Assembly: GCA_963920665.1 (NCBI GenBank)
Contig: OY987267.1
Location: forward strand, 11,284,001-11,348,000
Length of the DNA: 64,000 nucleotides
Source of the DNA: Straminergon stramineum
Lineage: Eukaryota > Streptophyta > Bryopsida > Hypnales > Calliergonaceae
Direction of reading: 5' to 3'
This document shows positions 6,100 to 64,000 of this stretch, piece after piece; position 1 is the first letter of the stretch; each line of letters opens with the position of its first letter. Below the pieces are notes generated by a model, which was not told the DNA's origin, searched no databases, and worked only from the letters and a program-made list of their open reading frames with translations. Both the position numbers and the translations under genes were made by a program.

Positions 6100-6560
6100 T
6101 TACTGATTTTCACAAAGTTTTCAACTTCTATATCATCATGTGATCACATGAAGTTTGAGACTGAGTGTAGATTATAACATTATGAGAATTGCATGCAAAG
6201 GTACTAAATAAGGTAGAAACACCTTCAAGCATCATTTTTTGGGAGTCCATTCAAAGAGAGTCTCATGTTACATATAGGCTACCCTATATTCTCAAATTTG
6301 AGAATTTGTAAAATATGACTAGAGCATTGTAAAACCACATGGATTGTGTAACTCATGAATTTGCTTCACCACTTGACCTTTGAAAAAGTAAGACTAGAAA
6401 ATGTATTCGTTTCAAGTGTTTTTGCCTTGCATGTCAAGCCAACTCCCAAGATATTTTTTTTCAAAAGAAGCATTTGTCCCATATCGATTGGGTATTAGAA
6501 TCTTTACTTGTATAAGTGTTCAATTCTAGCATTCTCTAGTACCTGGTGTTCCCAAGACCG

Positions 6561-6631
6561 ATCAAAGTGGAGTGGTGGAAGCGTGGTGGGCCCATAATCC
6601 ACAAGACAAGGATCGAAACCTTGCTTTAATT
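6561..6631 (+). pseudogene. tRNA-iMet-like sequence, decayed copy
   Basis: Homologous to the better-preserved copy at 11092-11163. The CAT anticodon loop (CCCATAA) and the T-arm GGATCGAAACC are kept. The D-arm has changed (GGAGTGGTGG) and the acceptor stem has mispairs. A T-run follows within about 20 bases. It is probably not a working tRNA. Confidence 0.65.
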
Positions 6632-7702
6632 TCACGAGACACCTTTTTTTACTTTTTTTTTAGTTTCTACAATTCAAGTATCATTTTCTTCACCACATCA
6701 ATGATAATGTAGCAAACTTCATCCAAATTTTGGAAATTGATATATTTCTCCCACTAAGATGTTTTTCACAATTTCATCCAAATTTTGACTATTGTTTGTT
6801 CATTTTCTAAGTTTTTAGTGCCATGGTAACTTTGGTTCATATCATGATGTTATACATCTTTAGAAAATATTTGGGGCCTCTACAAGGCCACCAAACTCTA
6901 TATTACCACCCCAAAATATGAATATTTAAAAAATATTCTTTTACTTTTTATTTGTATTGTGTGGTTAAGCTTTGGTTGCCTTGTAGAGGCCCCATTTTTT
7001 TCTAATGCTATAATACACATGTATGGAAAAATATTCAGATTTCTTTAGCATATTTGAATTGTATTTGACTTGAATTTTCTTCACTCTTTCTTAAAAATTC
7101 ACAATAGCTTCAAATTTTTGCAAAAGATTTTTGAAATTTTTATAACTTATAGAAGACATATGATTTCATCTTAGAAAAAAAATTCATTCATATACAGGGG
7201 CAAAAATGGCAACAAATAATGTGAAGGATTTTAAAGACTAAAACCATGGTTATTGGTTAGTCCTTTCGGTTTTAGAATTGTTTTGGCCAAAGTGAGAATA
7301 GAGATCGAATCTTTAGGAAATGTGGATTATTGAGAAGAGAGAAGTCAAAGTGAAGAAAATAATTGTTTTGAATTGGAGAATGAGTGATGTGTGTGTGCAA
7401 AAAAATTTGACACAAGATAGATAGAAAATTAGGAAGGTTCATTGTTAGTATAGAGAAAATTCAGAATTTCTTGATAGTACATGCAACATTGTCAACGTTG
7501 ATGTCTTAAAAATGCACAAATACATGCCTACAATAATAATAGCCTCATAAATTTCTCACTCCAAGGTCTTGTGGTTTAGGAGACATTGCTTCCTTGATTG
7601 ATGTAGAGAAATCAAGATTGAAAGATACACCTTCTACAAATGAAAATACATGCTTTCTTCTTCTCGAAATACAAGATGTATGAGTATACCAAATCTTCTA
7701 CT

Positions 7703-7905
7703 CACTACAAGAGAAAGGGGTGTTTTAAGTATAGTCCTAGTAGTATGGTCTCTTAAGTAATGACCTTTAAGTAAGGTTTTAAGTAAAAATTTACTAAAAA
7801 GACTATCTTTTTATTAAATTTTTACTTAAAACCTTACTTAAAGGTCATTACTTAAAAGACCATACTACTAGGACTATACTTAAAACACCCCTTTCTCTTG
7901 TAGTG
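7703..7905. mobile_element. CACTA-type foldback MITE, 203 bp
   Basis: The ends are CACTACAAGAGAAAGGGGTG and its exact reverse complement. The arms pair almost perfectly for about 90 bases around a short loop near 7795-7805. The element is flanked by the direct repeat ACT (700-702 and 906-908), the 3-bp duplication expected of CACTA/En-Spm transposons. The related repeat at about 15630-15650 reads ATCTTCTACTTGAAATTG, which is the uninterrupted site with a single ACT. It has no coding capacity. Near-perfect arms suggest a fairly recent insertion. Confidence 0.92.
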
Positions 7906-8010
7906 ACTTGAAATTGACACGAGTTTCATTGAAAAATGAACTTGAGAAAATTCATTCATAAATACTAAAGAACTAGAAGATACAAAGTGGGGAATTTCAA
8001 TTTGACTACA

Positions 8011-10480: not shown

Positions 10481-11091
10481 TTGTCACAAAGTCTTTAATT
10501 TCCATATCATCATATGCATTTTGAGAGTGTAGGTTGTGAAATTATGAGGATTGCGTGCAAAGGTAATGAATAAGGTAGAAGCACTTGTAAGCATCATTTT
10601 CTTGACCTCTAGATAACATCTAAATTATGGGTTACTAAAACGAGCCCTTGTTAAACTCTAATTCAACCTCACTTCTTAGATGCAACCAATGAGAGGTGAG
10701 GAGTTTTTTGGAGCACCAAATTGAGAGTTGAGGCATTCATTTCATGCTTGAAGGGTGACCATTCAAGGTGAGTCTCATGCTACCAATATAGACTAGCCTA
10801 TCATCTCAACTTTGGAAATTTGTAAAATATTATTTGAGCATTTTAGAATTAGAATACAAAACGGCACTTGGGTTATGTTTCTCTTGAGTTTGCTTCACCG
10901 CTTGACCTTTGAGAAAGTAAAAGTAGAAAAAGTATTCCTTTCAAGTGTTTTTGCCTTGCGTGTCAAGCCAACACCAAGGCTATTTTTTTTTCCAAAGTAG
11001 CCTTTTGTCCCATATTGATTGCATAATTGATTTCTACCGTGTATAAAAATGCAATTAGGTGTTACTTTGGTACCTGGTGTCCCCAGCGCCG

Positions 11092-11163
11092 ATCAGAGTG
11101 GCGCAGCGGAAGCGTGGTGGTCCCATAACCCGCAGGACCGAGGATCGAAACCTCGCTCTGATA
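11092..11163 (+). tRNA. tRNA-iMet(CAT)-like gene within a repeat
   Basis: This 72-base sequence folds as an initiator methionine tRNA. The acceptor stem ATCAGAG pairs with CTCTGAT and the discriminator is A. An A box (TGGCGCAGCGG) and a B box (GGATCGAAACC) are present, the T stem CGAGG/CCTCG pairs perfectly, and the anticodon loop is CCCATAA. A T9 run follows about 11 bases downstream, a good Pol III terminator. One defect is visible. Initiator tRNAs carry three G:C pairs next to the anticodon loop; here the innermost pair is T opposite C. Because it lies inside a dispersed repeat with a second decayed copy at 6561, it may be a passenger or the Pol III promoter of a SINE-like element, not a housekeeping gene. 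Confidence 0.65.
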
Positions 11164-11435
11164 TTGGGGGACAACTTTTTTTTTCCAGTTTCTGCTTTTC
11201 TTCAATTTCCACTTTTTTTTTCATTTTTTTTTCAATTTCAACTTCTTTTTTCAATTTCTAGCTGTTTCAAGATTTTTACCTTTTTCAATTTCTACCTTTT
11301 TCAATTTCTACCTTTTTTTATCTTTCTATTTTAAAAAAAATTCTACTTATTTTAGAATTTCACGTTTTATAAATCTTTAGTTTTTTAAATTTTTTACTAT
11401 TTTTCAATTTGTAGTTTTTTTAATTTGTTCGTCTC

Positions 11436-12797: not shown

Positions 12798-14531
12798 TTA
12801 ATCCCGAAAGGACCAAACTTCGTTTTTTGGCAACATAGTGATTTGGGGCAGCTTACTACAAATGGAAATTTTATATTTTTTCTTCCAAATTTTCACACAA
12901 CCTGTGCCCAAGGAGTAGCTTTAACCCCTAACTGCCTTAACGACCATAGATGGTCGATTTGAAATTTCAAGCCCATTTCTGCTTGGGCAGTTAAATTCCT
13001 GTGACCGGTTTTAAAATTTTTTTGGGCAATTTTGAGGGTTAACTATGGAAAATTTTCATTTTTCATGGAGAAAAGTACATATTCAATTATTGAGAGGTCT
13101 TCAAAGGCATATGTGTACTAAAAGTGGAGTGTAATGCTTGCTAATTTTTCTTCATTTCCCAGCTTTATGCAAAGCTTGGCAATTTCATTTGATTTGAGAA
13201 TGATCCCAATGAAAAGCTTAAAGTCTTTTTATGATTTTCACCATTGAAGATTTCAACATGCAAGTGTTTATTTGAAGCTATTTGCAATTTCTACTTACAA
13301 ACAAAAATTGCATTTCAACAATTGCATGGTGGATTGTGAAATGAGTTTGATGTTTTTTCATGTGAAATTAAGTTTTTTGGAAGTGCATTTTAGTGTGCTA
13401 ACACTCTTTAAAGTTGTTCATGTTACCTCCAATCCCAAAAAGCTTTTATATGCAAATTTTTGAAACATTGTGGACAAAGACAACATGCAAAAAATAGAAA
13501 ATGTACATTTCCTTTGGTATCATCTCACAACTCCTACGAAATTTCACACTCAAAATTGGTGTGAATACTAATAAACAAGCTCTATTAACATCTATATGGT
13601 TAGATTTGGAAAAAAAAACAATTTGCTTCATTGACGACAACTACAAGCCAATGCTCTTTTTTCATAGTCAAAACACACTTGGAAAGGCTGAGGCACTTAG
13701 GGGTTAAGGTCCAAAATTTTTTATAAATTTTGAAGACATGGTTAAAAAGTTACTATATGATATGTAGTTTTCATTGCTCAGTGGGCAGATCGGGCAGCAA
13801 AAAAAACTTTTGTAAAAATCACTTTTTTTTAAATAAAAATTTGAAATTGATTTTCTAGATTTATATATACATGTAAAGCTTTGAATCATTCCATTTTGAT
13901 TTACAAGATGAAAATTATGAAGAGTCTTAGTTATAGGTAGTTTGTGGGTAGTTAGCAAATCTCTACTTTAAAATAAACTTTGAAGACCTTCATCTAAGTT
14001 CTCAATTTTCATTATTTTTGGAAAAAAGAAGAAGTTAGGTGTATATTGTTTATTACAACATTACAACCATTGGGATTGGCATTTTTCAATTCTATAAATA
14101 AATTGTTAATAATTTAGTATTTTGAATCATTCTCTACTTCTTTCTACTTACTAATTTTTTCCTGTATGTTGTACAATTTCAAATGATCTAAAAGTTTTCA
14201 AGCATGTAGCGAACTTGACTTGAAGAATGAATCCAAAGAGTTAAAACCATTTTGGACATTCTCTCCTAATGATTTGACCTTGTAAAGTATAGCTGACCAG
14301 GTTTTTACAGGGCCCCAAAAAGTTTTTTTGTCAATTTAACCACTAATATCTTGAAATCTATAGGGTGAAAATTTCTGAAATTTTTTCTACATCTTTTCAA
14401 CCCAACATACTACAAGATCCTAAGGTTACATGTGTCCAAAACTGTATTTTTTCTAAAATTTGGTACTTGTACTAGAAATGGTAGTTTGGAGAGTTTTTAG
14501 TAAAAACATAGTCAAATACATTTAGGGGTAA
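12798..14531. mobile_element. TTAA-bounded MITE (family A) with a nested element
   Basis: The left end reads TTAATCCCGAAAGGACC and the right end ACATTTAGGGGTAAA, with a decayed TTAA. Removing the nested element at 12925-13707 leaves about 950 bp that align along their length with the elements at 42599-43531 and 58441-59367 (shared phrases include TTACAACATTACAACCATTGG). Non-coding. Confidence 0.82.
12921..13707. mobile_element. Nested TTAA-bounded element (family D), 787 bp
   Basis: The ends are TTAACCCCTAACTGCC and GCACTTAGGGGTTAA, so TTAA at 12921-12924 and 13704-13707 frames an inverted CCCCTAA...TTAGGGG. Outside it the sequence is GTAGCT upstream and GGTCCAAAATTTTTTATAA downstream. The equivalent place in the sister element reads TTTTTCTTTAAGGCCCAATAA at 58552-58572, a single TTAA, which is the empty site. 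A reverse-oriented relative lies at about 60505-61283. The short open frames inside are not conserved genes as far as I can tell. Confidence 0.88.
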
Positions 14532-15930
14532 ATCTAGTATGGATCACCTTTTTAGTGTATTTTGGGCACTTGATGTTCTCTACTCTTGATGTGAATTTGA
14601 GCCATAAAGATTGAATTTTTTGAATTTGAACTTGACTAATGAAATGAAGTTTATCAAGTATAGTTTTTACTCCAATTTGAAAATTTGAGTATTTTATTGC
14701 AATTTGAATTCTTGGGCCTATAACTATTGTTTGTTGATTTTGTAATTTTATAGTGCTATGGTAATTGGTAAATTTGGTTAATATCATGATATTATACACC
14801 ATTAGAAAAAAATTTGGGCATTTGCAAGGCTACCAAACTCTGTTTTAGTGCCCCAAAATATTGATATTTCAATATTTAAAAAATATTTATTTATTATTTG
14901 GACTACTAGTCAAACTTTGGCGGCCCTATTGGGACCTCATTTTTTTTCCTAATGATATAACACACACCTATGGAAAAAATTTCAAATTTTTTTAGCATAT
15001 TTGAATTGTATTTGACATGAATGTTCTTCACTCTTTCCTTAAAAATTCACAATATTTTCAAATTTTTGCAAAAGATTTTGAAATTTTTATAACTTATAGA
15101 AGACATGTGTTTTCATCTTTGGAAAAAAATTCATTCATATATAAGTGCAAATGGCAACAAACAAAGTGAAGGGCTATAAGGCTTGAAACCATGGTCATTG
15201 GTTAGTCCTTTCAATTCTAGAATTGTTTTGGCCAAAGTGAGAATATAGATAGAATCTTTAGCAAATGTGGATTATTGAGGATAGAGGAGCCAAGATGAAG
15301 AAAAGAAGCATCTTGAATTGGAGAATGAGTGATGTGTGTGCAAAAAAATTTGATACTAGATGGATAAAAAATTAGGAAGATCTATTGTTAGTATTGTGAA
15401 AATTAGAATTTCTTGCTAATGTATAGAACATTGTTGACATTGACATATGAAATATGCACAAATACATGCCTACAATACTAATAGCCTCATAAAATTTTTA
15501 CTTCAAGGTCTTTTGGATTCAATAGACATTACTTCCATGAATGATGTAGAGAAATCAACATTGAAAAATACAACTTCTATAAATGAAAACATGCTTTATT
15601 CAAGAAACACTCGGCATGTGGATATACAAAATCTTCTACTTGAAATTGACACAAGTTTAATTGAAAAATAAACTTGAAAAAATTCATTCAAAAATAGCAA
15701 AGAAATAGAAGATACAAAGTGAAGAATTTCAATTTGACTAGAATCATAGTCTACCTCCTATAGGGATTAACAATGAAGTCATCCATTGACCACTTTTTGG
15801 TTGTCGTGTCCTTCAAGGGTTAACCTTGTAAAGACATTTCAAAATCCTTCTAGAAATGAAGAATGCACATTTAGGTCTCAAATAAATTTTTTAGTGATTA
15901 CCTTGGTCATAGGTTAACATCCTTCCAAGG

Positions 15931-16154
15931 TTAACCCTTAAAGGACAAACTAGTGACTATGGAAATCATCACTTTTGAAACCATGTGACAATTATCTACT
16001 TTAAGAAAACCTAAAACACTCATTAGAAGTGGAACTACTTTGCAAAATCTCTCCTTTTTGCACAAAATCTCAGGGATGAACAATTTGCACTACATAGGAA
16101 GATTAGTTGTCATCCATCAAACAAAAAATGTCCTCGGCGTCATTTAACGGTTAA
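15931..16154. mobile_element. Short TTAA-bounded element, 224 bp
   Basis: The left end is TTAACCCTTAAAGGAC. The right end is GTCATTTAACGGTTAA, its imperfect reverse complement. The interior (CTAGTGACTATGG, CATGTGACAATTATCTACTTTA, GGGATGAACAATTTG) recurs in diverged form near 33.1, 37.6 and 39.1 kb, so this is a second, shorter family that uses the same kind of ends. Confidence 0.6.
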
Positions 16155-24100: not shown

Positions 24101-25873
24101 CGTGGCGTGGCAGCTGAGATACATTTGGGGAGTCAAAATTAGCATCCAACTGTTCAAATGGCCAAAAGGAGTGTATTTCAAATGCCTAACAGCACCCAAA
24201 AAAATGGAGGAGCACCAAGCTCTAAGGAAAAATTTGAAGAAAAATTGGATGATGACAACAAGTTGTTCCAATTTTTTTTTTTAAATTAGATGAAATTGCT
24301 AAATTTAAATGAAACTCATGCAAATATGAGGATGAAAAGATAGTGGTATCAAAAATATAGATGAATACTAAAATATTTGGCCACATCATTTTCTTGTATG
24401 TTGTTACTTCAATACTTCTCTAAATCCACCACACACACCCAAAAAATAGCCAAAAGTGACCACTAAGGTATGAGTTTTTAAAAGAGTTCAAACTTTGAAA
24501 GTATTTTCTAACACAAAAGGTACATATTGCTTTCTTTAATGTATCAATGGTCAACATGTAGGATTTGAAATACATCATTTGGGATTTTTCAAAGAAGGTA
24601 ACATTATATATCATTAAAAAATAAAAATGATGTCCTACATTCTTGAATTAAAAAAGAATCAAATTGAAAGTTACTGAAATCAATTGTTAGCCTCCAAAGT
24701 AAATATTATATAGTGAGTTAGGGTAGTTAGGTCAGTTAGGCCAAGAGATTATGAATTGTAAACAAAATGTGGTTTCCTTTCCCAAACTAATTTTTCTATT
24801 TTGTTGGTGAAAGGCCCTAAAAATATTCAAAAAAGGCAAGCAAGAAAAAATTTATACTATATATTTAATTTTGAATTCAAAATTTTAAAGTATATCCCAT
24901 AGGATGACATTAGTGAAAAAATATGAAAAAATCAACCTTCTTTCAAAAAAGAAGGTAGACCAAAAAAGAGCTTATACTTTATCAAGCTTGAAGTTGTCAA
25001 GCTATGTCTTAACCCTAGAAGGATGGGCCCATGACCATTGATTTCAAGTCTCACTCTAATCGGTGTCATTTTGAAACTAGATATGAATGAAAATTTTAAT
25101 ATTTATTTTTCAGGGATGAAATCGTATCTATATTTCAATTCATAAAATTTTAAAATTTATTTAAGAAAATTCGAAGTTGATGTTGTTTTCTGAATCTTTT
25201 TTTAAATGAAGAAAATTCATATCAACAACAAAATATACTCAAAAAGTAAGAAAATTTTCACCACAAATATACATTATAGTGTATAACATCATGGTATAAA
25301 CCAAAGTTATTGTGTCACTAAGATTGGAAAATCAACAAACACGGCTATAGTCCTAAAGTTCATATTGCTATAAAATATTGAAATTCATGAATTTTTCAAA
25401 ATTTCTTATGGAGGAGAAACTTGGCACTTGATAAGATTCATTTCATTAGTTAGACTCAAAAATAGAAAAAGTTTCATTTATATTTCTAAAATTCACATCA
25501 AGAATAAATAGTAAGAAATGGCCAAATTACACTTCAAAGGTGATTTGTGGATTAAACATCTTCATCTTTATAAAAGTCAATAATACCATAATAAGGGAAT
25601 TTGCAATACTATTTACTAAAAATGTATTCAAACAACTTCAAAAAAACTATTGGATGAAAAGACATTTTTTTCAATCCGACAATTTCAAGTGCATCCATCC
25701 ATCAAACACTTAGTGTCCATAACATCCTTTTAAAGTTAATTATACTTTTGCAAACCGCATTGTGGTTACTGTCCCCTAAAATTAAAATGCATAGAATGCT
25801 TTAGACCCTTGGTGCTCCAATTTTAAAATACAATAAAACATTTTAAACAATCAAAAATAATTATTGTCCCTTG

Positions 25874-33290: not shown

Positions 33291-33479
33291 ATTGTGAGAG
33301 GATTCAAGGTTCTTTAGATATGTTTGCACCACATGTTAGTAAAAATTCCCTCATTGAGGTGTTATTGACTTCTCTACACAAAAAGATGCTAAAGAATCAA
33401 ACCATAAAAGATGCTTCTTTTAATATATTTTTGGCAATTTGTACATCCTTTCTCTACATTTAAATTTTAGCTATAGTAA

Positions 33480-34400
33480 TTATCTTTTTTATATATATGA
33501 ACTCAACTAATGAAGTTGACAAAATCTACTCTCTACTCCAATTTTGAAAGTTTTAAGAAAATTGTAAAATTGAACTATTTAGAACTATTTAAATTTTGAA
33601 CCTATAACCAAGGTATACCAATTTTCTAATTATATAATGACATGGAAATTTGGATTACACTATGATATTCCAAACTATAATATACATGTATGATGAAAAT
33701 TTCTGAACTTTCAAGCATATATTATATTTGATATGAATTTTATTCACTCATAATTGAAAATTATAGTAATTTAAACTTTTTACAACAAAATTGAAAATTT
33801 TACAATTTTTAGACAATATGTGATTTCCTTCTCTAAAATTAAACTAAAATAATTTCCAATCATTTTTAGTGGCAAAATAGAGCATACAAAGCAAGAGATG
33901 TTGAGATAGTTGACATAGTTAGAGGCTCTCTTTTTCAAAGGTTGAAATGACAGGCTCATGATTATGGATTCAAGTCGTACAATCTTTCATTTTGTTTGTG
34001 TCCATTTGACAATTATATATTAATGAAAAATTTTGTATTTCTATTTTAGAGTTGAAATTACATGTCTTTTACAAGTCACAAGAATTTCAATATTTCTGTG
34101 AAATTTGAAATTAATATTAATTATATAAGGAAAAAAAGAAAGAAAATTCATATCAAATACAAAACATGCTAAAAAAATATGGAAATTTCATTGTGGATGT
34201 ATTTTATAGTATCAAACATCATGGTATACACCAAGGTTATTATGTCATTCTAACATTAGAAAATCAACAAACCATAGTCATAGATACAAAGTTGAAATTG
34301 CAATAAAATATTGAAATTTCCAAATTTTCCAATTTGAAGTAGAAACTACATTTGGTAAACTTCATTTCATCAATCGGTCTCAAATTTTTTTTTTAAATTT
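33480..34400. repeat. Large imperfect inverted repeat related to the long repeat
   Basis: Left arm 33500-33860 contains AATGAAGTTGACAAAATCTACT and ends in the ATTGAAAATTTTACAATTTTTAGACA part. Right arm 34020-34380 contains the reverse order, ending GTAAACTTCATTTCATCAAT. Both arms are relatives of 14640-15130 in the long dispersed repeat, so two copies sit head to head. Confidence 0.6.
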
Positions 34401-35496
34401 ATAGCTCAAATTCACATCAAGAATATAGAACAAGAAATTGCCAAAAATGCACTACAAGGATGATCTATAGATTAAGCATCTTCTTCTTTTGAAAAGTCAA
34501 TAATACAATAGTGAAGGAATATTCAATATTCTTCACATAAAATTCCCTCAAGCAATTCTCCAAAAAATATTTGGATGAGAAACTATTTTTTTTCTATTCT
34601 TGTAGCCTTGGCTTCTTGAAACCATCCAAAAGATACAAAACATCCTTAGAGTTGTTTTGAGGTAAGGACCAAACTTTCAAATTTTGAACAACATAGGAAT
34701 GCAAAAACATCCCAAGCATACAAAAATTGGGATTTTTAATCCATTTTTTAATTTGTAGATTCTTGTGATAGTTTTGTAATGTTTGTATGATTTAGATTCT
34801 AAAGACTTTGTTTTGAATACATTCTATTCCCATTGGATAATGGTATTTTAGCACTTCAAAAAATAGCTTTTCTAGTTCAAAAATGATTCTTTGCATGGAC
34901 AACTACTCTAAGACTTCGTTTGTTCAAGGTTTCAATCAAAGTCTGATGGATTTTTGGGTAATAGTAACACATTGTAAATTTTGGAACATGTCCCACGTCC
35001 TATTTTGGATTCAAATTTTTTTAATCTTGCAACATTTCAAAAAATAAAAAAGCTATTTCTCTTCCCAATAGTCCTTGAGGTATTCTCTTGTTTTTTTAAA
35101 ACCATGATAAGATCCAATATGTGTACATGCTCAAATTCATAGTTTCAAATGATATGGGATTCTATGTTTCTAAAATTTGTATTTGTATCCATATATGCAT
35201 ACAAACATGTCAACACTTTATATCCATGTATTTGTATGTGGGACATAGACGTCACCTATTTGTCTGTTTTGGAGCAATGGTGTATGTGACAAAGGAACTA
35301 TTTACCTTCTTTAGAGGATAGACGTTGTAATTACTTTATGTATTAAACCCTTGGCTAGTTGAGATGCCTCCCAAAATTTGGTCGAGGATACTAATTTTGA
35401 AAAATTTTGATTAAAAAAAGTCTTTTTTTTGTATTTGCTATACTACTTCTAGTGATTTAGAACAAAATTCCAACATCAGTTAAATAATTGCATTAT

Positions 35497-35857: not shown

Positions 35858-38800
35858 TTATCTTCTTCTAGTTTTCTATTGGCTTGTAGCAAGAATAAAT
35901 TACTTTTTGAACTCTATCAATATTTAGCATCTAAAAGAACAATTAATTAGTTTGATTAGTCATTGTCTTTGCTCAGATTAATTCCACATGTTAAATCCAA
36001 TTCACCTACACACTTAGAACTTTTTCTTATCATACACTTGGGAATCACATGAAAATAAATAATCATATAGTGTATTTAGGTTGGAATTGGTTTGATATAT
36101 AAGAGATTTTTTTGTCAATTTTAATCAATGTATCATTTAGCTAGCCAATTAAAGCTCCAAGATTTTAAAACTAGACTACTATTTTTGAACTTTGTCCATC
36201 TTTTATGTGTCCTTTTATCTATGCTAGATTGCTGAAGAATCAAACTACAGTGTTTTCACCTAAGATGTCTCCCTTTTTTCAATACTACTTCCAAGAATTC
36301 TTTTGAACACCAAGACAATGAATCCATTGGTAAATTTTGAAATTTTAACATCTCCAATTTGAAAATCTTCAACCAATCATCATGAGCAGTGCGGACTGAA
36401 GAAGAGCCCAAGTTTTCCATTATAGAAATCCAATCAAATATAAAAAGATGTTTATTCTAACAATCTACTACTACTAAGTATTTATATTCTAATGATATTT
36501 ATATATTCCATTATTTTTTTGTTCTAATTCTTCAACAATACCTTTATGCATATATTGAATTTCAAATTATCCCATTTATATACAGTTCCTAAGAATAAGA
36601 AGGGTGGACTAGTGACAATATACTTAAAGTGAAATCTAGAATAAGGAATGTCATTTTGTTGGTGACTAGACTCCAAATGTGATTGCAAAGAGTGTGACTA
36701 AGGTGGGTAAATCCAAAATTACACCTTGCCTAGAACTGCCATCATCCCTCTATGTACATCTCCAAAATCAATAAGTACGTTTGTTGAAGAAAACGATTTT
36801 ACAACCCCAACCAAACTTAAAACTTTGACCCTTCATAACTTTTGCATACGATATCCAAAAGTTGCATTCTTTGGTGCATTAGAACCTTCCTTCATTTGCC
36901 TGCAAGAAAAATTTGACCAGTCTACTGATAGTATCTAAGAAACGTAGCAAAAAGTGGCAGTTTTGGGGGGTACCCACCTGAAAGTATACGGTACTACTCA
37001 AAACCAACACAGACAAAGAAGAAACCGACAGACACCAGCAGAGTGCCTGTACTAGAATCCCACCTTCAGTTCAGGTAAGCATTTAGTGATATCCATCCAA
37101 TGTGAGGTACATTAAGAATAACAAATGAATCTACAGTGACTGTCACTCTGTCAGTAGTTTGGTTGTGCGTGTCCTTTCTGCAACTGAGTGTTAAGTTACG
37201 TTGAGTGTAACTGCTCCGAGCGACAAGCAACCAACCACGGCCGCATAACTTAATATATATAAGCATCTGGATTCTGCCGGCCAACGATTGGCACCTCACG
37301 GCACTGCAACTGTGGATCGTCGTCGTCCCCACTTTCAATTTCAATGGTTCTAAAGAGCTTCCCTGAATATCTTAATAACTTCCCCATCATTCAGTCCCTG
37401 GCCTCCTGCCATTCCTGCAGCTGCGATGGCCATGTGAGGCCACTTGCAACGGCTGCAGGAGTTCAGGGAGTACGAAGCTACACACTACAGTTACAGTACT
37501 AACATAAGTTAGTACACCGAAATCAGCTTATTCAGCATGGTCTAAACTATTCCTCTAAACTATAATTCATCACAAGGATATCCCTTGAACGCCGGGCTGG
37601 TGACCGTGGAAATCAGCCATTTGGGAACTGTGTGACATCAGCCACTTTCAAAAAAATAAAAAAATACTCATTGGGAGTCAAATTTTTGTAGAAGATCTTC
37701 CCTTTCCACTCCTAATTCCAAGGATGAATAGCTGCACTTCTGTCCTACACATGAGAATTCCTTGTCATTCCTTGGACAAAAAACGTCCACTGCATTGTTT
37801 AGGGGATATATTGACTTATTCAACACCCATTGTATGCAATTGTGGTGGTTGTCTGTTGTAGGGTTTGTCGTTAGTGTACAATGGTGGAGTTGTTAGATTG
37901 GGCATCTCAATTCTCCTATTGGGTTAATTATCCACCTATACTAAATAACTATTGGATTAGTGTACCAATTAGTAACAAGAGTAGTAGTTATAGTTAGTAG
38001 AGCAACAATATTAAGAGAATCTATAATCAACACTAATAGCATTTGTGCACACCTACTATTACATACATTTTTTAAAATCAAAATCTTATCAACAATTGAA
38101 AGAGGATTCCAATGTACTTTTGCAAACATTATTTGGAAATTGTATGAATAAGAATGTGCACATACTTTAACTTGTTTCAATGTAAAATCAAACATTGAGC
38201 TCTATTATTTTGGTTCTCATGTCTTGTTTGTAAACATCTTTTGTCATCAATAGAGTTAAATAATCCTAAAGTGTGTGCAACGAGTAACCAGTAATTGTAG
38301 TTTGAGAAAACACAAGATGAATTTCTTTGAAGCACCAACCAAACTTAGTCTAATGGAGTTTGGTGTTGTCTTAATTTCTTTTGTACAATTCTCAATTAAA
38401 AAACTTCCTTTGACACCCCTTCTACATTGAATAGGGTTATTAAGGGGGCCCATACAAATTAATTGATATTTTACACTATATAAGTATCTACCATTATTGT
38501 ACATCAATAGTTATTGAAGTCTCCAGGGGATGTACATTATGTTTCAAACATCTATAGTTTTCTACAATCAATCCCTCTAATTTTTTGGTCCCCATAATAA
38601 TGCCCCTATTCAGTGTACAAGGTGGGGAGACCTTTAATTCCAATTAACTCTAGTATCTAAGTTTTAGTATTGTTTTTTTGGTTTTGGGGGCATCATGTTA
38701 GACAATAATGATTACACCGGCCTGGGGTGCACATAACTTTTACTAAGGTAGGAGGCTTGAACTCCAACCACACATTAAAAGTGAACATGACTAAGAGGTA

Positions 38801-39249
38801 CATTTTGCTTTCTTCAATGTACCAACTCTTCACATTTGAGGAGGTGGTTGCTTTTGATGACCCACTATTGACCACTTTTTTTCAACTTCAAAAATTTGTA
38901 ACTAATTCTACAAAGTTCCCAAAAATATGAAACGCCCTGGGTTAGATGCCAATTGCATTTTTCTTCCTAAGAAAATTTACTAATAATTGTTTCAAGGAGC
39001 TTCCAAGAAAAGGTGATCACTGATTAGTTCTTAACCCTTGGAGGATGGACTGGTGACTGTAAAAATACTCCCTTTTGAAACTATGTGACATCATCTACTT
39101 TATAAAATCCAAAAATATTCATTGGAAGTCATACTACTATAGAAGACCTAAGCTTTTCTTAGAAAATTCCAAGGATGAATAGTTGTAGTTTTGTCTTACA
39201 TAGAGAGATTCTTTGTCACCCATTAGACACAAAATGTCCGTGTCGATGT
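35858..39249. other. Mostly gene-free; G+C-richer island at 36.95-37.55 kb
   Basis: No gene is firmly supported. The island at 36950-37550 stands out by composition. It has a TATA-like TTAATATATATAAGC at about 37249-37263 and, downstream on the plus strand, an ATG at 37343 opening a 53-codon frame (MVLKSFPEYLNNFPIIQSL...). It may be a first exon, a truncated gene or a non-coding transcript. At 37620-37800 and 39031-39249 lie relatives of the short TTAACCCTT repeat. Confidence 0.35.
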
Positions 39250-39846
39250 TTAACCCCTAAAGGACCGAATGACCGTTGAATGTACGCAACTAATCTCAGA
39301 TAGGTGCATATGAAGTCGTTCTACAATGGATGTTCTTCAAATTTTGATACAAGGAGTGAACATATATTCCCTAAGTGGGAATGTAATTTTTTTCCTGATC
39401 GGGTGCCCAGATCAAAAGTTATGTTGCCCTAAACTTTTCAAGCAACTCAAGTAGCTTAGGCAGCGTCGGGTAGCATGTGCAAAATACCTCTTCTACTTTT
39501 GAAATTTGGTAGGTATGTAATTTACATGATACAAGATGCAAATGTCAAAAAAAATAACCAAGTGTAGTTTAAAAATCTCACCTTAGGAGGAGTTAAAGGC
39601 TGTTGGCCTTACCAAGCAAGGTTGAAAAAAAAAAATTCTCTTGACTTCAAATGTTATAATCTTTCAATCCATACAATCAAAGTTTCTGAAATTTTTCCCA
39701 CACATTCACATAGTAGTCTAGTACAAATTTGTATGGGTTGAATTTTGAAAAAAAAACTTAAAATTTTTCTTTTCTCACTGCCCTAAAAAGTGACAATTTT
39801 TCACAATTTTTTTACCTAAAATGTGCCTCGGTCTTTTAGGAGTTAA
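39250..39846. mobile_element. TTAA-bounded MITE (family C), 597 bp
   Basis: Left end TTAACCCCTAAAGGACC, right end GGTCTTTTAGGAGTTAA, TTAA on both sides. Its interior matches the element at 59379-59952 (GACCGTTGAA-like start, ATCAAAAGTTATGTTGCC, CTGCCCTAAAAAGTG). Non-coding. Confidence 0.82.
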
Positions 39847-40013
39847 GGGTTAAATGGTCGCTTTATGAGCCTCCTACCTTACTTGAGCATTCATTTGGCC
39901 TCGAGTTGTGTTGCCCGTGTTCAAGCTAGTGTTCGCCACTGTTTGACGGCTTTGACCTGGAGTTCCTTTGACAGCAGCGCAGCGCCATGTCAAACCTTTT
40001 GAGCTCATCGTCA

Positions 40014-42598: not shown

Positions 42599-43531
42599 TT
42601 AACCCCTAAAGGACCAGCCTTGTGTTTTTGGCAACATAACTTTTGGGGGCAGGTACATGTGAGCAGAGATTTGACTCATTTAGGCTGAAATTTTTTGACA
42701 AGGTGTGGACGAGGAATATCTTTGATGCATGCTAAATTTCATTTCATTTGAGTATACAAGTAAAAAGTTATGATGCAAAATGTTGTTTGTTTCTCAACTC
42801 GGGCAGCTCGGTCAGATCTGAAAAAATCACTTTTTTCAAAAATAAAAATTTGAAATTGGTTTTCTATATTGACATATATGGGGAAAGCTTTGAATCAGTC
42901 CATTTTGATCAATGTGATGAAAGTTATGAGGAATTTTAGTTTGCGGGCAGTTAAGGAATTTGTACTCTAAAATAAACTTTGAAGTCCTTTATTTAACTCA
43001 ATTTTTCATATTTTTTGAAAAAAATAAAATCATAGGATGTAGATTGTTTATTACAACATTACAACCATTGGGATTGGCATTTTTCAATTCCATAATTAAA
43101 TTTTTGACAATTTATTATTTTGAATTATTTTCTACTTCTTTCTACATTCTATTTTTTTCCTATATGTTGTACAATTCCAAATGATTTGAAAATTTTCAAG
43201 AACATAGACAACTTGCCTTGAAAAATGAATCTAAAGATGCACCACCATTTTGGACATTTTTTCATACAAATGTGACCTTCTGAAGTGCTGCTGCCCGGTT
43301 TTTTGCAGGGCAAAAAAATTGATTTTTGTCACTTCAAATGTTAATATCTTCCAATCCACATGGTGGAAATTTTTGAAATTGTTTCCACATCCTTTCAAAA
43401 CAACTTACTACAAAATCCTACAGTTACATGTGTTCAAAAATGTTATTTTTCTTAAATTTGGTACTTGTGCTAAAAATGGCAGTTTTGGAACGTTTTTGGT
43501 GAAAACATAGTCAAGGAACTTTAGAAGTTAA
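42599..43531. mobile_element. TTAA-bounded MITE (family A), 933 bp
   Basis: Left end TTAACCCCTAAAGGACC, right end GGAACTTTAGAAGTTAA, TTAA on both sides. It is collinear with 58441-59367 and with 12798-14531 after removal of the nested insert. Short open frames inside are not conserved between copies. Confidence 0.87.
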
Positions 43532-52565: not shown

Positions 52566-53483
52566 TTAACCTATAAAGGACCATTGTCCCTTCGGAGGAC
52601 AAATGGGATTTCGAACATGTACCTATAGTCTCAACTTTTATCCTTATTTTTTGAAACTTTTTATGAAGATAGAAAAAATTATTAACATCATGGAAATATA
52701 ATTTTTTTCATTTAGTGCCTGAGAACAAAAGTTATGTCCAAATAAGCTCAAAACAAAGAGAGGGGATGACAAAAAAAAAATTCGAAAATTTTAATTTTAA
52801 TTTTAATTATTTTTTCCTCATAGATTACATTTTTGTCTATATGGAAAGATTAGATTCATTCCATTTGGATTTTTTATGAGAAAGTTATGGACAATCTTAT
52901 TTTGGGGGCAATTAGAGCATCTTCTTCAAAAAATAACTTGTAGAATTCATTTCTAAATGCAATATTTAAAAATTAAAAAAAAAAAGGTTTCACATGGTTT
53001 AATTTTCTTGCTAGAACAATCTCACCATTGGGAGTAGTGCATTTTAATTCCATCTTAGAGATATTAATACTTCATAATTTCCTTATATCTTGTACCTACT
53101 TCTACTTAACATTTTTTTAAAGAATAACAATTAATTTTTTATATGTTGTTTTTCTTTCCCAAAGTCTCAACTCAATTCTCCACCATATAGATTTAAAGCT
53201 AAAACTTCGTAGTACATAAAATTACAGTTATGAAGGTTCAAAGTCAAATAATCTAATTTTGCAATGTGTTGGAAAGCTTGTTTTTTCACTTTAAACACCA
53301 ATGTCTTGCAATCTTTGTGGTCAAAATTTCTAAAAAAATTCTACGCATTTTCATAATAGTTAGGTGCAAGATCCTATAGTTAGATGTGCAAAAAAAATTC
53401 AAATTTTTGTACTCTTTGCTATAGAAATGGCAATTTTGAGTGTTTTTTTGGAAAAACAATGTCCTTGGTCTTTTAGGGGTTAA
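52566..53483. mobile_element. TTAA-bounded MITE (family B), 918 bp
   Basis: Left end TTAACCTATAAAGGACC, right end GGTCTTTTAGGGGTTAA, TTAA on both sides. The left part resembles 11436-12015; it has extra interior sequence and the shared right-end segment (TACTCTTTGCTATAGAAATGG). Non-coding. Confidence 0.82.
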
Positions 53484-57455: not shown

Positions 57456-58440
57456 CTTTTACGTAGGCCCTTCTCTAATGCTTCTATTTGTGTATGACAC
57501 GTTTTATATATTTCTGAAAAAGTTGGCATCTCAAAAAGCTCTGCAAACGCTTATTGCGCAAGAAAAGACACTCAGAGCAGCTCCACTCCAAACTCCAAGT
57601 CAAACGTGACTGCGAGTGTAGCCGAAAGGTGGCGTTTCAGTGCTCCACGACATTACCGGTACAGCTTACCCATTTTCATGAGCTCACCCAGTGACTCAAA
57701 TTCTTTGACTATGGAGGATCCTTCTCTTTCATGACATCTTCAATGATGCTATGTACTCCCTCTATCCCCAAAAGATCTTCATGTTGGTCTTGATTTTTGT
57801 ATTCCAAAATGATGTTGTTGTACTTGATATTTCAAATTGGTCAGATTTGGCTTTCAATTGCTATTTGGGACCAAGAAAAGAACTCCAAGTAGTAGCTTCC
57901 CCTCCATCTATGTAATCATCAACTAGAAGACAAATGAAATGATTGAAGGAGTTGATTAGCATTGTTTGTTTGTATTTTTTATATCTCTTTGAGTGTTGTT
58001 TGATTGAAGGAATTGAAGCTTTGGGAGGAGGAATAAAGATCCATACATGGTCTAAGGCCTAGACTAACTCCCACAAATTGACAACCTCACACTCCACAAT
58101 TAAGTGCCCATTGGTATTCCTTGAAACTACCCCAAATCTTGGGTTGCTTCTATGGTCAATTACAAATGCCCGCTCCATTTAAGAACCTCCTCCTATAGTA
58201 TAGAATATAATTGGCATTTTCAATCTCCCATAACAAACATTCAATTCTTCTACAAATACATCTCAAGCACACAAAATTTTAGTTTCGAAAAACCAAAACT
58301 CCATATTTGGTGAATTGTTTCAATTAATATTCATGGATTTACACGATAATTGATTTTAAAAACATGGGTGATTAATTATTTTTTTTTAATTTGATGATTG
58401 CGTAGATATGTAGGAAATATCCATAGCACATCCATCATGT
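57456..58440. other. Gene-free flank upstream of the SABATH gene
   Basis: No gene is supported. The G+C content drops after about 57.7 kb into AT-rich repeat-like sequence. Confidence 0.45.
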
Positions 58441-59367
58441 TAACCCTTAAATGACCACACTATATTTTTTTTCAAAACATAGCGATTTGGGGTAGCTAAC
58501 TACGATTAGAAATTTTCCTTTGAAAATTTCACACAACATGGGGACAAGGTTTTTCTTTAAGGCCCAATAATTTTCATAACTTTTGACTACATGGTTGAAA
58601 AATTCTTGTATGATATGTAGTTTTTTTCTTCAATTGGGCAATCTTGGCAAGTAAAAATATCAATCTTTTAAGAAATAAAAAATTGAAATTAGTTTTCTAG
58701 ATTTATATATATGTGGAAAGCTTTGAATCATTCCATTTCCATTAATGAGATGTAACTTCAATGAGGAGTTTTAATTTGTGAGTAGTTATAGATTCTCTAC
58801 TCTAAAATAAACTTTGAAGTCCTTTATTTAATTCAATTTTCAATATTTTTTTACAAAAAAATCATAGGGTATAGATTCTTTATTACAACATTACAAGCAT
58901 TAGGATTGGCAACTTTCAATTCCATAACAAAATTCTTAAGAATTTATTATTTATTTATTTTAAATCATTTTCCAATTCTTTCTACTTACTATTTTTTTCC
59001 TATATGTTGTACAATTCCAAATGATTTGAAACTTTTCATGCTTGTAGCCAACTTGCCTGGAAAAATGAATCCAAAGAAACACCACCATTTGGGCCATTTT
59101 TTCATACAAATGTGACCTTATGAAGTGCAACTGCTTGGTTTTTGTAGGGCCAAAGAAAGGATCTTTGTCAATTCAAACGCTAATATCTTGCAATCCATAT
59201 AGTGGAAATTTCTTTAAAAAATTCCACATCTTTCCAAACTAGCATATTACAAGATCCTTTGGTTACCTGTGTCCCCAATTTTTTTTCTATAGTGTGGTAC
59301 TTGAACTAGAAATGGCAATTTTAGAGCCTTTCTAGTGAATACATAATCGTGGAACTTTCGGGGTTAA
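58441..59367. mobile_element. TTAA-bounded MITE (family A), 927 bp
   Basis: Left end TTAACCCTTAAATGACC, right end GAACTTTCGGGGTTAA, TTAA on both sides. It is collinear with 42599-43531. At 58557-58560 it keeps the single TTAA into which, in its relative at 12.8-14.5 kb, the family D element inserted. Non-coding. Confidence 0.88.
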
Positions 59368-59378
59368 AAAACATCCCA

Positions 59379-59952
59379 TTAACCCCTAAAGGACTAAGTG
59401 TCCGTTCAACATAGGCAAGAAATCTTGGGTAGGTTCCTATAAAGTCATTTCTAGTCAGATGTTCATGAAATTTGGACATGATGTGTAAATATGTACCCAC
59501 TTCTTGAAAATCAAATTTTTTTTCCCAATCAGGTACTCGGATCAAAAATTAAGCTGTCTTGAATTTTGTGGGCAGCTCTGGGCAACATGTGCAAAATTCT
59601 TCCTATAATTTTGAAATTTGGCAGTTGTGTAGCTTACATGATACAAGATGAGAATGTTAAAAAAATAACTATGTTTAGTGAAAGAATCTCATTCTAGGAG
59701 TTAAAGTTTGCAGGCCATGTCGAGCAAGGTTGGAAAAAAACTTTTTCACCTAACTTCAAACATTATAATCTTTCAATCCATGTGGTCAAAGTTTCTAAAT
59801 TTTTTTCCACATGTTCCCAAAGAAGTCTAGTACAAATTTGTATGGTTTAATTTTGAAAAAACAACTTTTTTTTCATTTTTTCTTGCTGCCCTAAAAAGTG
59901 GTAGTTTTTGACAATTTCTACCCGAAATGTGCCTTGGTCCTTTAGGGGTTAA
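59379..59952. mobile_element. TTAA-bounded MITE (family C), 574 bp
   Basis: Left end TTAACCCCTAAAGGACT, right end GGTCCTTTAGGGGTTAA, the cleanest inverted ends in the window. It starts only 11 bases after the family A element ends. The interior matches 39250-39846. Non-coding. Confidence 0.9.
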
Positions 59953-60499: not shown

Positions 60500-61285
60500 A
60501 GGGATAATCCCTAAGTGCCTAAGCCTTTCCAAGTGTGATTTTCCTATGGAAAAAGAGCATGGGCTTATAGTTATCCCCAATGAAGCAACTTGATTTTCAA
60601 TTTTCAAAATCTAACCATATAGATGTTTAAAGAGCTTGCTTATTAGTATGCATGTCAATTTTGAGTGTAAAATTGCATAGGAGTTGTGAGATTATAACAA
60701 GAGAAATGTATATATATTATATTTTTAGTATGTTGCCCTTCCCTACAATGTTTGAGAGATTTGCATATAAGAGCTTTTGGGATTGGAGGCAACATGATTG
60801 AATAACTAGAAGTTGTGTTAGCATACTAAATTGGACTTCCGAAAACCTTAAGTTCAAAAGAAGAGCTATCAAACTCCTTACACAATCCACCTTGTAATTG
60901 TTGAAATGCAATTTTTTTTATAAGTAGAAATCACAAATAACTCCCAATCAACACTTGCATGTTTAAATTTTCAATGGTGAAAAACATGAAAACACTTTAC
61001 TCTTCCTTCGGGACCATTTTCAAAGCAAATGGATAAGATCAATTTTTTAGATCCCAAATCAAGTAAAATTGGCAAGCTTTACTCTTCTAGTATTGGTACA
61101 TATATGCCTTTGAGGACCTCTCAAAAATAAAATATTTACTTTTTTCACTAACAAATCAAAGCTAATAATGATTCTCCTTCAATGTTGCCCATAAATGTTT
61201 TTAAGAATGGTTAAAGGAATTTAATTGCCCACGTACAAATGAGCTAAAATTTTGGAACAACCATATATGGTTGCTTAGGCAAATT
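60500..61285. mobile_element. Family D element, reverse copy, decayed ends
   Basis: It is the reverse complement of 12921-13707 over most of its length. It begins ATAATCCCTAAGTGCCTAAGCC, close to the reversed right end of the nested copy. It ends near TATGGTTGCTTAGGC, matching the reversed left end (GGTCGTTAAGGC). The boundary TTAA sites are no longer intact. Confidence 0.65.
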
Positions 61286-64000
61286 TTATGTAAAAAAATA
61301 TGATCTTTGAAGTGTTCAATGTGAGGTGTTGTAAGACTAAACTTTGTAAATTAGATATCTCTATGTCTTAACTATATTGTTGTGGTGATTGTAAGTCTAC
61401 ATGGCTCAAGTTAATTGCTAGAAAAGTGACAAATTTGGCCACTCTACCATGATGATTATTAGTCTACACTCTACCATATCGTGATGTTTAATTGGTTGAT
61501 GTGGCTTAGATGGACTAGTAATATATAGTTGGATTCAATAATCTTACAAATTGCTTATTGTGCCATTCAAATGTTTTGCATAATATAAAATAGAATTGGA
61601 ATTTTTTGTCTTGCAAAATGAACATTCAAATCTTGTGCAATTCCAATCAAGCACCCCAAATTTCAGTTCCAAAAAAATCCAAACTCCATTTTTGGTAAAT
61701 TATTTCATTTAATATTCATAATAATAAATCAAAAAACATTGGCAATGAATTTTTTAAACTCCATAGCACAGAAGTGTAAGAAACATCCATACGCACATCT
61801 TTTCTTCAACAAGAATCTCAAAAAAAAATTTAGAATTCCCTATGTTGAGATTTCAAAGTTGGGGTGACAATGCCCAAATGTTGTAAAATGGTTATTTCTT
61901 TGTTGTAATTAGATTTTGCTATTTTGACACACATAGTACAGTGATGAACAAAACTAAGTACAAATTTGAAATGTTTTCATTCAAACAACCATACCATGAG
62001 CATCAATGGATAAAGTCCAAAAGTATATACATGAAAGTTGTAGTGTGAGACATACTACACATTAACATGGAAGTTTGAAGAAAAAATTATTTGTGATTTG
62101 AAAGAAAATTAATTTCAAAGTTAGGCATGTCTAAAATTTAGTTTTGTTCAACATGATTTGGAACTGCTTTATCTTTTGTCAATTTTTCTCAGAACTTTGA
62201 AAAAAAAGTTTATGCCTTGGCTTGTTGGTATACATCATTTCAAATTGTACACAAAAATTGAAGAAAATTGACATTTATAGAATTTAAAATATAAAAAATT
62301 TGACAAACATCATGCAAATGATGTTAGTTTTTCACAATATTTGATTTAAAAAAAAATTAAGAACATGGGATAGCATTAGCCATTGTAGAGAGTAAAGGTT
62401 GCAATATAGACCATTGTTACATCTTAATGCCCTTGCATTTGAAATATTTGTTGAATTGGATAGTGCATTCAATTTATATTTCATAGCCATATAAGGCATT
62501 TCTAGGTTCAATTTTTTGGTCCAAAAACTACCAATTTTATGAATGTTAGGGTATTTTTTGACAATTTCCAACTTTTTGCCTATCACCAAGGCAACAACCT
62601 TCCAAGGTTAACTTTCAATGTATAGCACATGTTGTTGTGTATCCAACACATTGCATAGTGGCCTCCCAAAACAAAAAGATTGCTCCCTCCTCTTTGTAAA
62701 AAGGCAAGGGGGTAAGCAATCACTTTGCGAGGACATTGTTCTATATAATATAAGGAATTTCTCTTACTTGGACTTTAGTCACTTTTAGGTAGGAGGTCCA
62801 TAAAGTGCCCATTGAAGAGCTGAAATTGAATTTGGGGAGTTGAAACTTCTTGATATATTTTTCAGTAAATTTCCCTTATTTAGAAGAAAAATAGAATCAG
62901 CACCTAATACAAGTTGTTTCACATTTTTTTGGAGATTTTTAAAATTAATTATGGATTTTTGAAGTCGTAATGTAGTGAGCTCTAAACTCACCCACCTCCT
63001 CAAATGTAAACTATTTGTACATTTTTGGTACAATGAAAAAGCAACATGTACAAATTGTGTAAGTTTGAAGAGGTGGGCAATTTCAGAGCTTGATCTCTTT
63101 ATAGACCTCGCTTCAACCTTATTGTATTTTTGATTGTTCACTTCAATGTGGTCACAAGCATCAACTCAAGGCTTTATTGATCTACCAATGCAAATATCTT
63201 CAACTAGTTTCAACTTCACCTTTGAAATTGGATTCCTAAATATATTAGTTCTCGTCCAAGTTAGCCATTGAGGGTGATTGCAAGAAAGACCAGTCCTATT
63301 TTGCATCACATTCAGAGTGATAGAGTTGTTTTCTGCTGGAACTTTTGGAGTTGGAGCCTGATGAGCTTGAAATTTTTATTGGAGATGACTAACTTGATTT
63401 TTATCATATCCCTCATTTTTCAGAAATTTTAAGAAATCATTTTATATTTAAAAATCAATTTGGCTAATTTGTCACACTTTGGGGTTTAGGGATTTTTAGT
63501 ACTGTGGAGTATCCAAAATTAATGATCTAGAGCTGAAATTTTTGTGGTCTATTCTTACAATAGGAGTACATGTGCCCACCAAATGAAATCTAAAAATACA
63601 TTATTTTATGGCCTCCATATTTGTGCAAATAGGGCTCCCTTGTGCACACACTTCTGAACATTGAAGATGGTTTTGACTTCATTATTTTGGTGAAATTTGA
63701 TCACCATCAAGTCCTCACAAATTGCCAATTTTTAGATTTTTTTGTTCATGATTTTCTATTTATTATTAATTAATATCTCATTGTATCTATTTTCTGTGAC
63801 AAATTGTCTTTTTTTTCAAATAGTACTATTTTAGTACTTACTAGTAGTCATAACACTCAAAACGGTACTTTCAACCATCGATTTTTTAGATCAACAACTG
63901 AGATTTCTTGATTTCCCAGTACTCATAGTATTCCTAATAATGAGCGTAGAATTTGTTGTTTTTGGCAAAATGCTACATAAATCATTCGGTCTTTCTTGCA
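61286..64000. other. AT-rich gene-free DNA
   Basis: No gene is supported. The open frames at 62332-62589 and 62785-63141 (minus) have no family features and lie in low-complexity AT-rich DNA. Confidence 0.45.

What the first reader, a model, noticed from the sequence alone, without database searches (positions are those of the whole stretch)
12921..13707. Empty-site proof of TTAA-targeted transposition within the window
The nested element is framed by TTAA on both sides (12921-12924, 13704-13707) with inverted CCCCTAA/TTAGGGG ends. Its host element has a sister copy at 58441-59367. At the equivalent place that copy reads CACAACATGGGGACAAGGTT then TTTCTTTAAGGCCC, a single TTAA. TTAA duplication with CCC-starting ends is the hallmark of the piggyBac superfamily. 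To my knowledge that superfamily is rarely described from land plants. The superfamily label is inferred; the TTAA duplication is seen directly.
Basis: partly seen in the sequence, partly recalled or inferred. Interest (0 to 1): 0.85.

Follow-up and report, generated by a model that had tools for sequence, protein, structure and literature searches.

The report
Nested TTAA jumping element in plant
A short, gene-less piece of mobile DNA jumped into an older relative at a TTAA site in what appears to be a land plant; it looks like the widespread piggyBac type, already listed for plants but little described there.

Summary
A 787-bp element (12921-13707) with TTAA on both sides and inverted ends CCCCTAAsTGCC sits in an older element (12798-14532). 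The sister copy at 58440-59367 has one TTAA at the insertion point, aligned without a gap. A second sister reads TTGA there.

The window holds more. A second nested insertion (39250-39846 inside 39031-39853) meets a single TTAA in one of five compared sisters. Of 11 elements with both ends placed, 9 have TTAA on both sides, 1 has one base changed, 1 has ATAT on both sides. A 12-base end motif that excludes TTAA is preceded by TTAA at 21 of 45 sites; simulation gives 0.25.

Best reading: old, non-autonomous piggyBac-type (MITE-like) elements. The superfamily stays inferred: no transposase among 110 window ORFs, the genome search did not complete (12 calls), and Kolobok also duplicates TTAA, though its ends are 5'-RR (PMC9587614, passages); here 22 of 22 ends start with two pyrimidines. 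Papers already list PiggyBac among plant superfamilies: a new member of a known kind.

The parts
12921..13707 (+). Nested element B1, 787 bp including both TTAA copies; inverted ends CCCCTAAsTGCC
   Evidence: second copy B2 at 78%
12921..12924 (.). Left TTAA target-site duplication of B1
13704..13707 (.). Right TTAA target-site duplication of B1
12798..14532 (+). Host element A_12, split by B1; left TTAA, right TAAA (one base changed)
58440..59367 (+). Sister A_58, 928 bp, TTAA both sides; empty site with one TTAA at the B1 insertion point
42599..43531 (+). Sister A_42, 933 bp, TTAA both sides; TTGA at the B1 insertion point
60505..61290 (-). B2, second copy of the nested element (78% over 787 columns); ends eroded (ATAA at its right end; left end no longer recognisable; 61290 approximate)
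39031..39853 (+). Element C_39 (small family of about 220-230 bp), TTAA both sides, split by A_39
39250..39846 (+). Element A_39, 597 bp, TTAA both sides, inserted at a TTAA inside the right inverted repeat of C_39: second nested insertion
15931..16154 (+). Sister C_15931, 224 bp, TTAA both sides; single TTAA (CATTTAACGGTTAA) at the A_39 insertion point
37578..37809 (+). C_37, 232 bp, ATAT on both sides instead of TTAA
11436..12015 (+). A_11, 580 bp, TTAA both sides
52566..53483 (+). A_52, 918 bp, TTAA both sides
59379..59952 (+). A_59, 574 bp, TTAA both sides, 12 of 12 inverted identity
15820..15934 (+). Short (115 bp) TTAA-bounded stretch with inverted CCTTG ends; shares its right TTAA with C_15931 and its left TTAA with a further end on the other side
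   Evidence: read by eye
25009..25739 (+). Candidate further TTAA/TTAA pair, 9 of 12 inverted identity; not among the 11 placed elements

Best explanation
The region 12921-13707 is an old, non-autonomous DNA transposon (MITE-like) that a piggyBac-type cut-and-paste transposase inserted into a TTAA already present in an older element with related ends. Joining across the four bases TTAA left TTAA on both sides. Shown: TTAA on both sides, inverted 5'-CCCC ends, one TTAA in the empty sister site, and a second event of the same kind in the window. Inferred: the transposase belongs to the piggyBac superfamily, works through a TTAA hairpin and overhang as described for the moth element, and is or was encoded elsewhere in this genome. 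The longest placed element without an insert is 933 bp, too short for a transposase of about 550-600 aa, and copies within a family are about 73-78% alike by BLAST, so they probably stopped moving long ago.
For: Empty site; second nested insertion with a single TTAA in one sister; 9 of 11 placed elements TTAA/TTAA, with varying bases just outside; family A ends fall on TTAA in an alignment made from internal similarity; TTAA enrichment that is not built into the motif; paired ends above simulation. TIRs of 12-19 bp with a CC[C/T]T terminal motif and TTAA duplications are given as piggyBac features, and one coral piggyBac-type MITE family starts CCCCTC (PMC2872659, passages). Kolobok ends are 5'-RR (PMC9587614, passages); here 22 of 22 ends start with two pyrimidines, 19 with CC (my count). 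No transposase domain in 110 stop-to-stop ORFs of 75 aa or more, as expected for MITEs.
Against: No transposase was found, so the superfamily is untested. Only 5 of 22 ends read CCCT; 12 of 22 read CCCC (my count). One element has ATAT/ATAT. The second A sister reads TTGA at the B1 insertion point. At the A_39 insertion point only one of five C sisters has TTAA; the others read TTAT, TTAG, TTGA or are too diverged. B2 and five C-like pieces have one eroded or unplaced end and were left out of the 11; leaving them out raises the share of TTAA/TTAA. CCC is not universal in piggyBac: many bee elements start CAC (PMC10140906, passages).
Confidence: 0.8

Rival explanations
1. A different TTAA-duplicating superfamily (Kolobok, Sola3 or another) moved these elements.
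For: Kolobok also makes TTAA duplications (PMC9587614, passages). Sola3 is recalled to target TTAA; that comes from no call. No transposase is available to decide.
Against: Kolobok ends are 5'-RR...YY-3'; none of the 22 ends here starts with RR. The same passage names chlorophytes and rhodophytes as plant hosts of Kolobok, no land plant.
Confidence: 0.12
2. A Tc1/mariner-type element with a TA duplication, ends starting with A (ACCCC...GGGGT) and a preference for TTAA context. A single TTAA empty site looks the same under this model.
For: One TTAA empty site cannot separate T-TA-A from TTAA. TA-duplicating elements are common in plants (general knowledge).
Against: Under TA the outermost T and A should vary. 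They are T (left) and A (right) in 10 of the 11 placed elements, while the next base outward varies. The eleventh has ATAT/ATAT, a matched 4-bp repeat that under the TA model would need the same change at both terminal bases. Caveat: pieces with eroded ends were not among the 11.
Confidence: 0.05
3. No insertion occurred: the sister lost the piece by deletion, or the repeats are coincidence.
For: TTAA is common in this AT-rich window (425 sites, one per 151 bases).
Against: A deletion exactly between two TTAAs at the borders of an inverted-repeat unit that has a second copy elsewhere (60505-61290) is unlikely; A_42 also lacks B1; a second nested case exists at 39250-39846; simulations rarely give such pairs.
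Confidence: 0.02

Closest known systems
piggyBac superfamily DNA transposons (Trichoplusia ni piggyBac)
   Same: TTAA target and duplication, short inverted ends starting CCC (passages)
   Different: No transposase gene here; ends mostly CCCCTAA rather than CCCT; host appears to be a land plant; superfamily not confirmed by a transposase
piggyBac-type MITEs, e.g. CMITEs of Acropora corals (PMC2872659, passages)
   Same: Short, non-coding, TTAA duplications, CCC-starting ends (one family CCCCTCAGTGTCCG), past movement shown by an empty site, tandem arrays, and insertion at a TTAA inside a relative
   Different: Larger here (224-933 bp against about 100 bp), other sequence and host; proof here comes from sister repeat copies, not alleles
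Kolobok superfamily
   Same: TTAA duplications
   Different: Ends 5'-RR in Kolobok, two pyrimidines in 22 of 22 ends here
Stowaway (Tc1/mariner) MITEs of plants
   Same: Short non-coding elements with inverted ends (general knowledge; TA duplication also in PMC10004981 passage)
   Different: 2-bp TA duplication instead of four fixed bases

Membership tests
piggyBac superfamily | TTAA target-site duplication | tested here: met
   9 of 11 placed elements TTAA/TTAA, 1 TTAA/TAAA, 1 ATAT/ATAT; empty sites. B2 and five C-like pieces with an eroded or unplaced end not counted
piggyBac superfamily | Inverted ends of 12-19 bp with CC[C/T]T terminal motif (PMC2872659, passages) | tested here: inconclusive
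   17 of 22 ends start CCC, but 12 of 22 read CCCC and only 5 CCCT (my count); inverted identity over 12 bases 11 in B1 and 12 in A_59; several elements fell below 9 of 12 in that test (A_42, A_52, A_58, C_15931, C_39)
piggyBac superfamily | DDD transposase (Pfam DDE_Tnp_1_7; name recalled, not from a call) | tested here: inconclusive
   None in 110 ORFs of 75 aa or more in the window, as expected for MITEs; the partner elsewhere in the genome could not be sought (12 genome-search runs unanswered)
piggyBac superfamily | Seamless excision restoring TTAA | not testable with these tools
   Needs alleles or living material
Kolobok superfamily | Ends 5'-RR...YY-3' | tested here: not met
   22 of 22 ends start with two pyrimidines; rule from PMC9587614 passages
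Tc1/mariner (Stowaway) | TA duplication with the outer bases free | tested here: not met
   Outer bases T...A in 10 of 11 placed elements, matched ATAT in the eleventh
Sola3 | Sola-type ends and transposase with TTAA duplication | not tested
   Family features recalled only; no call

The most novel reading that the evidence does not exclude
A land plant, perhaps a moss, carries several related, once very successful families of TTAA-inserting elements that repeatedly landed in each other's ends. Their transposase could be a plant-specific branch of piggyBac or a separate TTAA-specific lineage not yet described.
Probability: 0.12. Interest if true: 0.6.

Novelty: new member of a known kind. Interest (0 to 1): 0.35.

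Why it matters
If the partner transposase is found and is piggyBac, it would be a native plant element of a type that can leave without a footprint. A 2023 review states that all DNA transposons found in plants leave one, and describes use of the moth element in plants instead (PMC10905368, passages). It would also make testable how piggyBac reached land plants. As it stands it is a clean demonstration of TTAA-targeted insertion from one window.

Tried and rejected
Partner transposase: Pfam on 110 ORFs gave 22 families at E 0.05, plant genes (IDM1, sucrose phosphatase, SABATH, POP5) plus weak, chance-level names, and no transposase. ORFs under 75 aa were not scanned. A 17-base end pattern gave 0 matches in viral contigs. 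A 25-base interior pattern gave 1 match in genome contigs (L001, a Spirochaetota record). L001 has no BLAST similarity to the window at E 1e-3, so that match is chance. Both scans warn that records of the window's own genome may be left out.

Family D repeats (14723-15640, 6788-7702, 25009-25671, 33337-34592): most ends show no TTAA. One stretch, 25009-25739, does have TTAA at both ends with 9 of 12 inverted identity; it was not followed further and is not among the 11.

Left out of the count of 11: B2, and five C-like pieces near 10375, 15823, 33079 (two, back to back at one TTAA) and 41561, whose far ends are eroded or unplaced. Single unpaired ends such as 20735 were also left out.

The third protein-database search was not used: a moth piggyBac query would probably return animal hits and cannot link a transposase to these ends.

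Papers: all 10 searches used. I saw listings with the starts of abstracts, and passages from PMC10905368, PMC10794571, PMC6890710, PMC10619864 (only the word piggybacking), PMC9587614, PMC5791352 (piggyBac only in its reference list), PMC10140906, PMC2872659, PMC7351741, PMC2528002, PMC10004981, PMC10813416, PMC2874221 and PMC4438587. No paper was read whole.

Full report
What is there. The nested element B1 spans 12921-13707 (787 bp with both TTAA copies). Its ends read TTAA-CCCCTAACTGCCTTAA on the left and, on the other strand, TTAA-CCCCTAAGTGCCTCAG on the right. It lies in element A_12 (12798-14532), which is 952 bp long when B1 and one TTAA are set aside. A_12's relatives are at 58440-59367 (A_58) and 42599-43531 (A_42). 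By BLAST they are 75-77% identical to A_12 to the right of B1 and 65-70% to the left; A_58 and A_42 are 76% identical to each other.

The empty site. With B1 set aside and one TTAA kept, the host flanks align with A_58 on both sides. At the junction the host reads GTAGCTTTAAGGTCC and A_58 reads TTTTCTTTAAGGCCC, gapless for about 35 bases to the left and 60 to the right. So A_58 has one TTAA where A_12 has TTAA-B1-TTAA. A_42 also lacks B1 but has TTGA at this place, which looks like the site after one change and proves nothing alone.

A second case in the same window. Element C_39 begins at 39031 and ends at 39853, but 39250-39846 is another element (A_39) with TTAA on both sides. The joined flanks give GATGTTTAAGGGTTAA, the form of a C right end. 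The sister at 15931-16154 reads CATTTAACGGTTAA there, with a single TTAA. The four other sisters compared read TTAT, TTAG, TTGA or are too diverged at that place. Thus A_39 probably landed on a TTAA inside the inverted repeat of C_39. This also explains the double TTAA at 39843-39853.

How regular the TTAA is. I placed both ends for 11 elements. Nine have TTAA on both sides (A_42, A_58, A_52, A_11, A_39, A_59, B1, C_15931, C_39). A_12 has TTAA and TAAA. C_37 (37578-37809) has ATAT and ATAT. Not in the 11: B2, five C-like pieces with an eroded or unplaced end, and the candidate pair 25009-25739. Leaving out eroded pieces favours TTAA. The bases just outside TTAA differ from element to element. 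To avoid choosing ends by their TTAA, I searched for the 12 bases inside it, CCCCTAAAGGAC, with up to 3 mismatches: 45 hits, 21 directly preceded by TTAA; 20 Markov-1 simulations gave a mean of 33.9 hits, 0.25 with TTAA and at most 2 with TTAA. The motif was taken from these elements, so only the TTAA part is an independent test. Paired inverted ends with TTAA: 7 observed, 2 of them alternative pairings; simulated means 0.36 (maximum 3) and 0.11 (maximum 1). That rule (9 of 12 inverted identity) misses A_42, A_52, A_58, C_15931 and C_39.

Four bases or two. A TA duplication with ends starting with A would leave the same empty site. Under that model the outer T and A should vary; they are fixed in 10 of 11 elements. 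The ATAT/ATAT copy is most simply one insertion at a non-TTAA site that duplicated four bases. Rare non-TTAA duplications are reported in an animal piggyBac survey, though ATAT is not in the passage I saw (PMC10813416). It is a single case.

Anatomy. Family A has at least three subfamilies: A_42/A_58/A_12, A_52/A_11 and A_39/A_59. Between subfamilies the last 215 bases are on average 59% alike (n=16 pairs), left bases 26-215 are 45% alike, and random 215-base pieces 24% (maximum 38%). A longer shared right end would fit a transposase that needs unequal ends, as proposed for piggyBac (PMC7351741, passages); that is an inference. Elements or pieces abut and share a TTAA at several places (33079, 15820, 15931), which is what insertion into the TTAA at the edge of an older copy would leave.

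No transposase seen. Of 110 stop-to-stop ORFs of 75 aa or more, Pfam matched plant genes (IDM1 C-terminal and Tify-binding domains, PHD, sucrose-6-phosphate phosphatase, SABATH methyltransferase, POP5) and some weak, chance-level families, but no transposase, at E 0.05. Shorter ORFs were not scanned.

Which plant. These genes make a land plant likely. POP5 has 11 listed relatives at E<=1e-20; the closest full-length one is unnamed (73%), and the only one with a named organism is the moss Ceratodon purpureus (63%). The SABATH query, with exons joined by eye, lists 40 relatives at E<=1e-30. The closest is unnamed (63%) and two unnamed metagenome proteins have 55-58% over less than half of it. 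Among named ones Ceratodon has the highest identity (41% over 66% of the query), against Ginkgo 34%, Wollemia 35% and named flowering plants 29-36%; but Magnolia, Brassica, Ginkgo, Wollemia and Aristolochia proteins have better E-values than Ceratodon, and two liverworts and a lycophyte are at 29-33%. A moss or other bryophyte is therefore a weak inference.

Mechanism. For the moth piggyBac, the transposase frees the 3' end, makes a hairpin across four flanking bases, opens it to a TTAA overhang and joins it into an unpaired TTAA target (PMC7351741, passages). The elements here carry the marks such a reaction leaves. That this enzyme family did it is inferred from TTAA plus 5'-CCC ends (PMC2872659, passages) and from the 5'-RR ends of Kolobok, another TTAA superfamily (PMC9587614, passages). 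CCC is not universal in piggyBac: many bee elements start CAC (PMC10140906, passages).

Novelty. In the library searched I saw no listing or passage devoted to native piggyBac elements of a land plant with target sites shown; the library lacks most subscription papers. But PiggyBac is already counted among angiosperm MITE superfamilies (PMC10004981), in a fern repeat table (PMC6890710), in all groups of one survey (PMC4438587) and as found in plants in a review (PMC2874221). The coral CMITEs show the same behaviour, including insertion at a TTAA inside a relative (PMC2872659). I therefore file it as a new member of a known kind.

Changes on checking. I corrected the length of A_12, the identity ranges, the number of C-like pieces left out (five), the candidate pair at 25009-25739, the sisters at the second insertion point that lack TTAA, and the account of the SABATH hits.

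Noticed in passing
7696-7912: A 217-bp foldback (95% inverted identity) with ends CACTACAAGA...TCTTGTAGTG in a repeat whose sister at about 15640 lacks it; ACT stands on both sides and once in the sister. It looks like a CACTA-type MITE with its own empty site (CACTA label recalled).
   Followed up: partly
37578-37809: A C-family element flanked by ATAT on both sides instead of TTAA, perhaps an insertion at a non-canonical site.
   Followed up: partly
15767-16154: A chain of TTAA-bounded pieces that share TTAAs edge to edge.
   Followed up: partly
25009-25739: A further pair of inverted ends with TTAA on both sides, 9 of 12 identical, overlapping the family D repeats.
   Followed up: no
11092-11163: A tRNA-Met (CAT) by Rfam and ARAGORN inside a stretch (10753-11222) that is 74% identical to 6241-6688; a true gene or part of a repeat.
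   Followed up: no
33337-34528: A long imperfect palindrome (64% over 1227 columns) that overlaps family D repeats.
   Followed up: no
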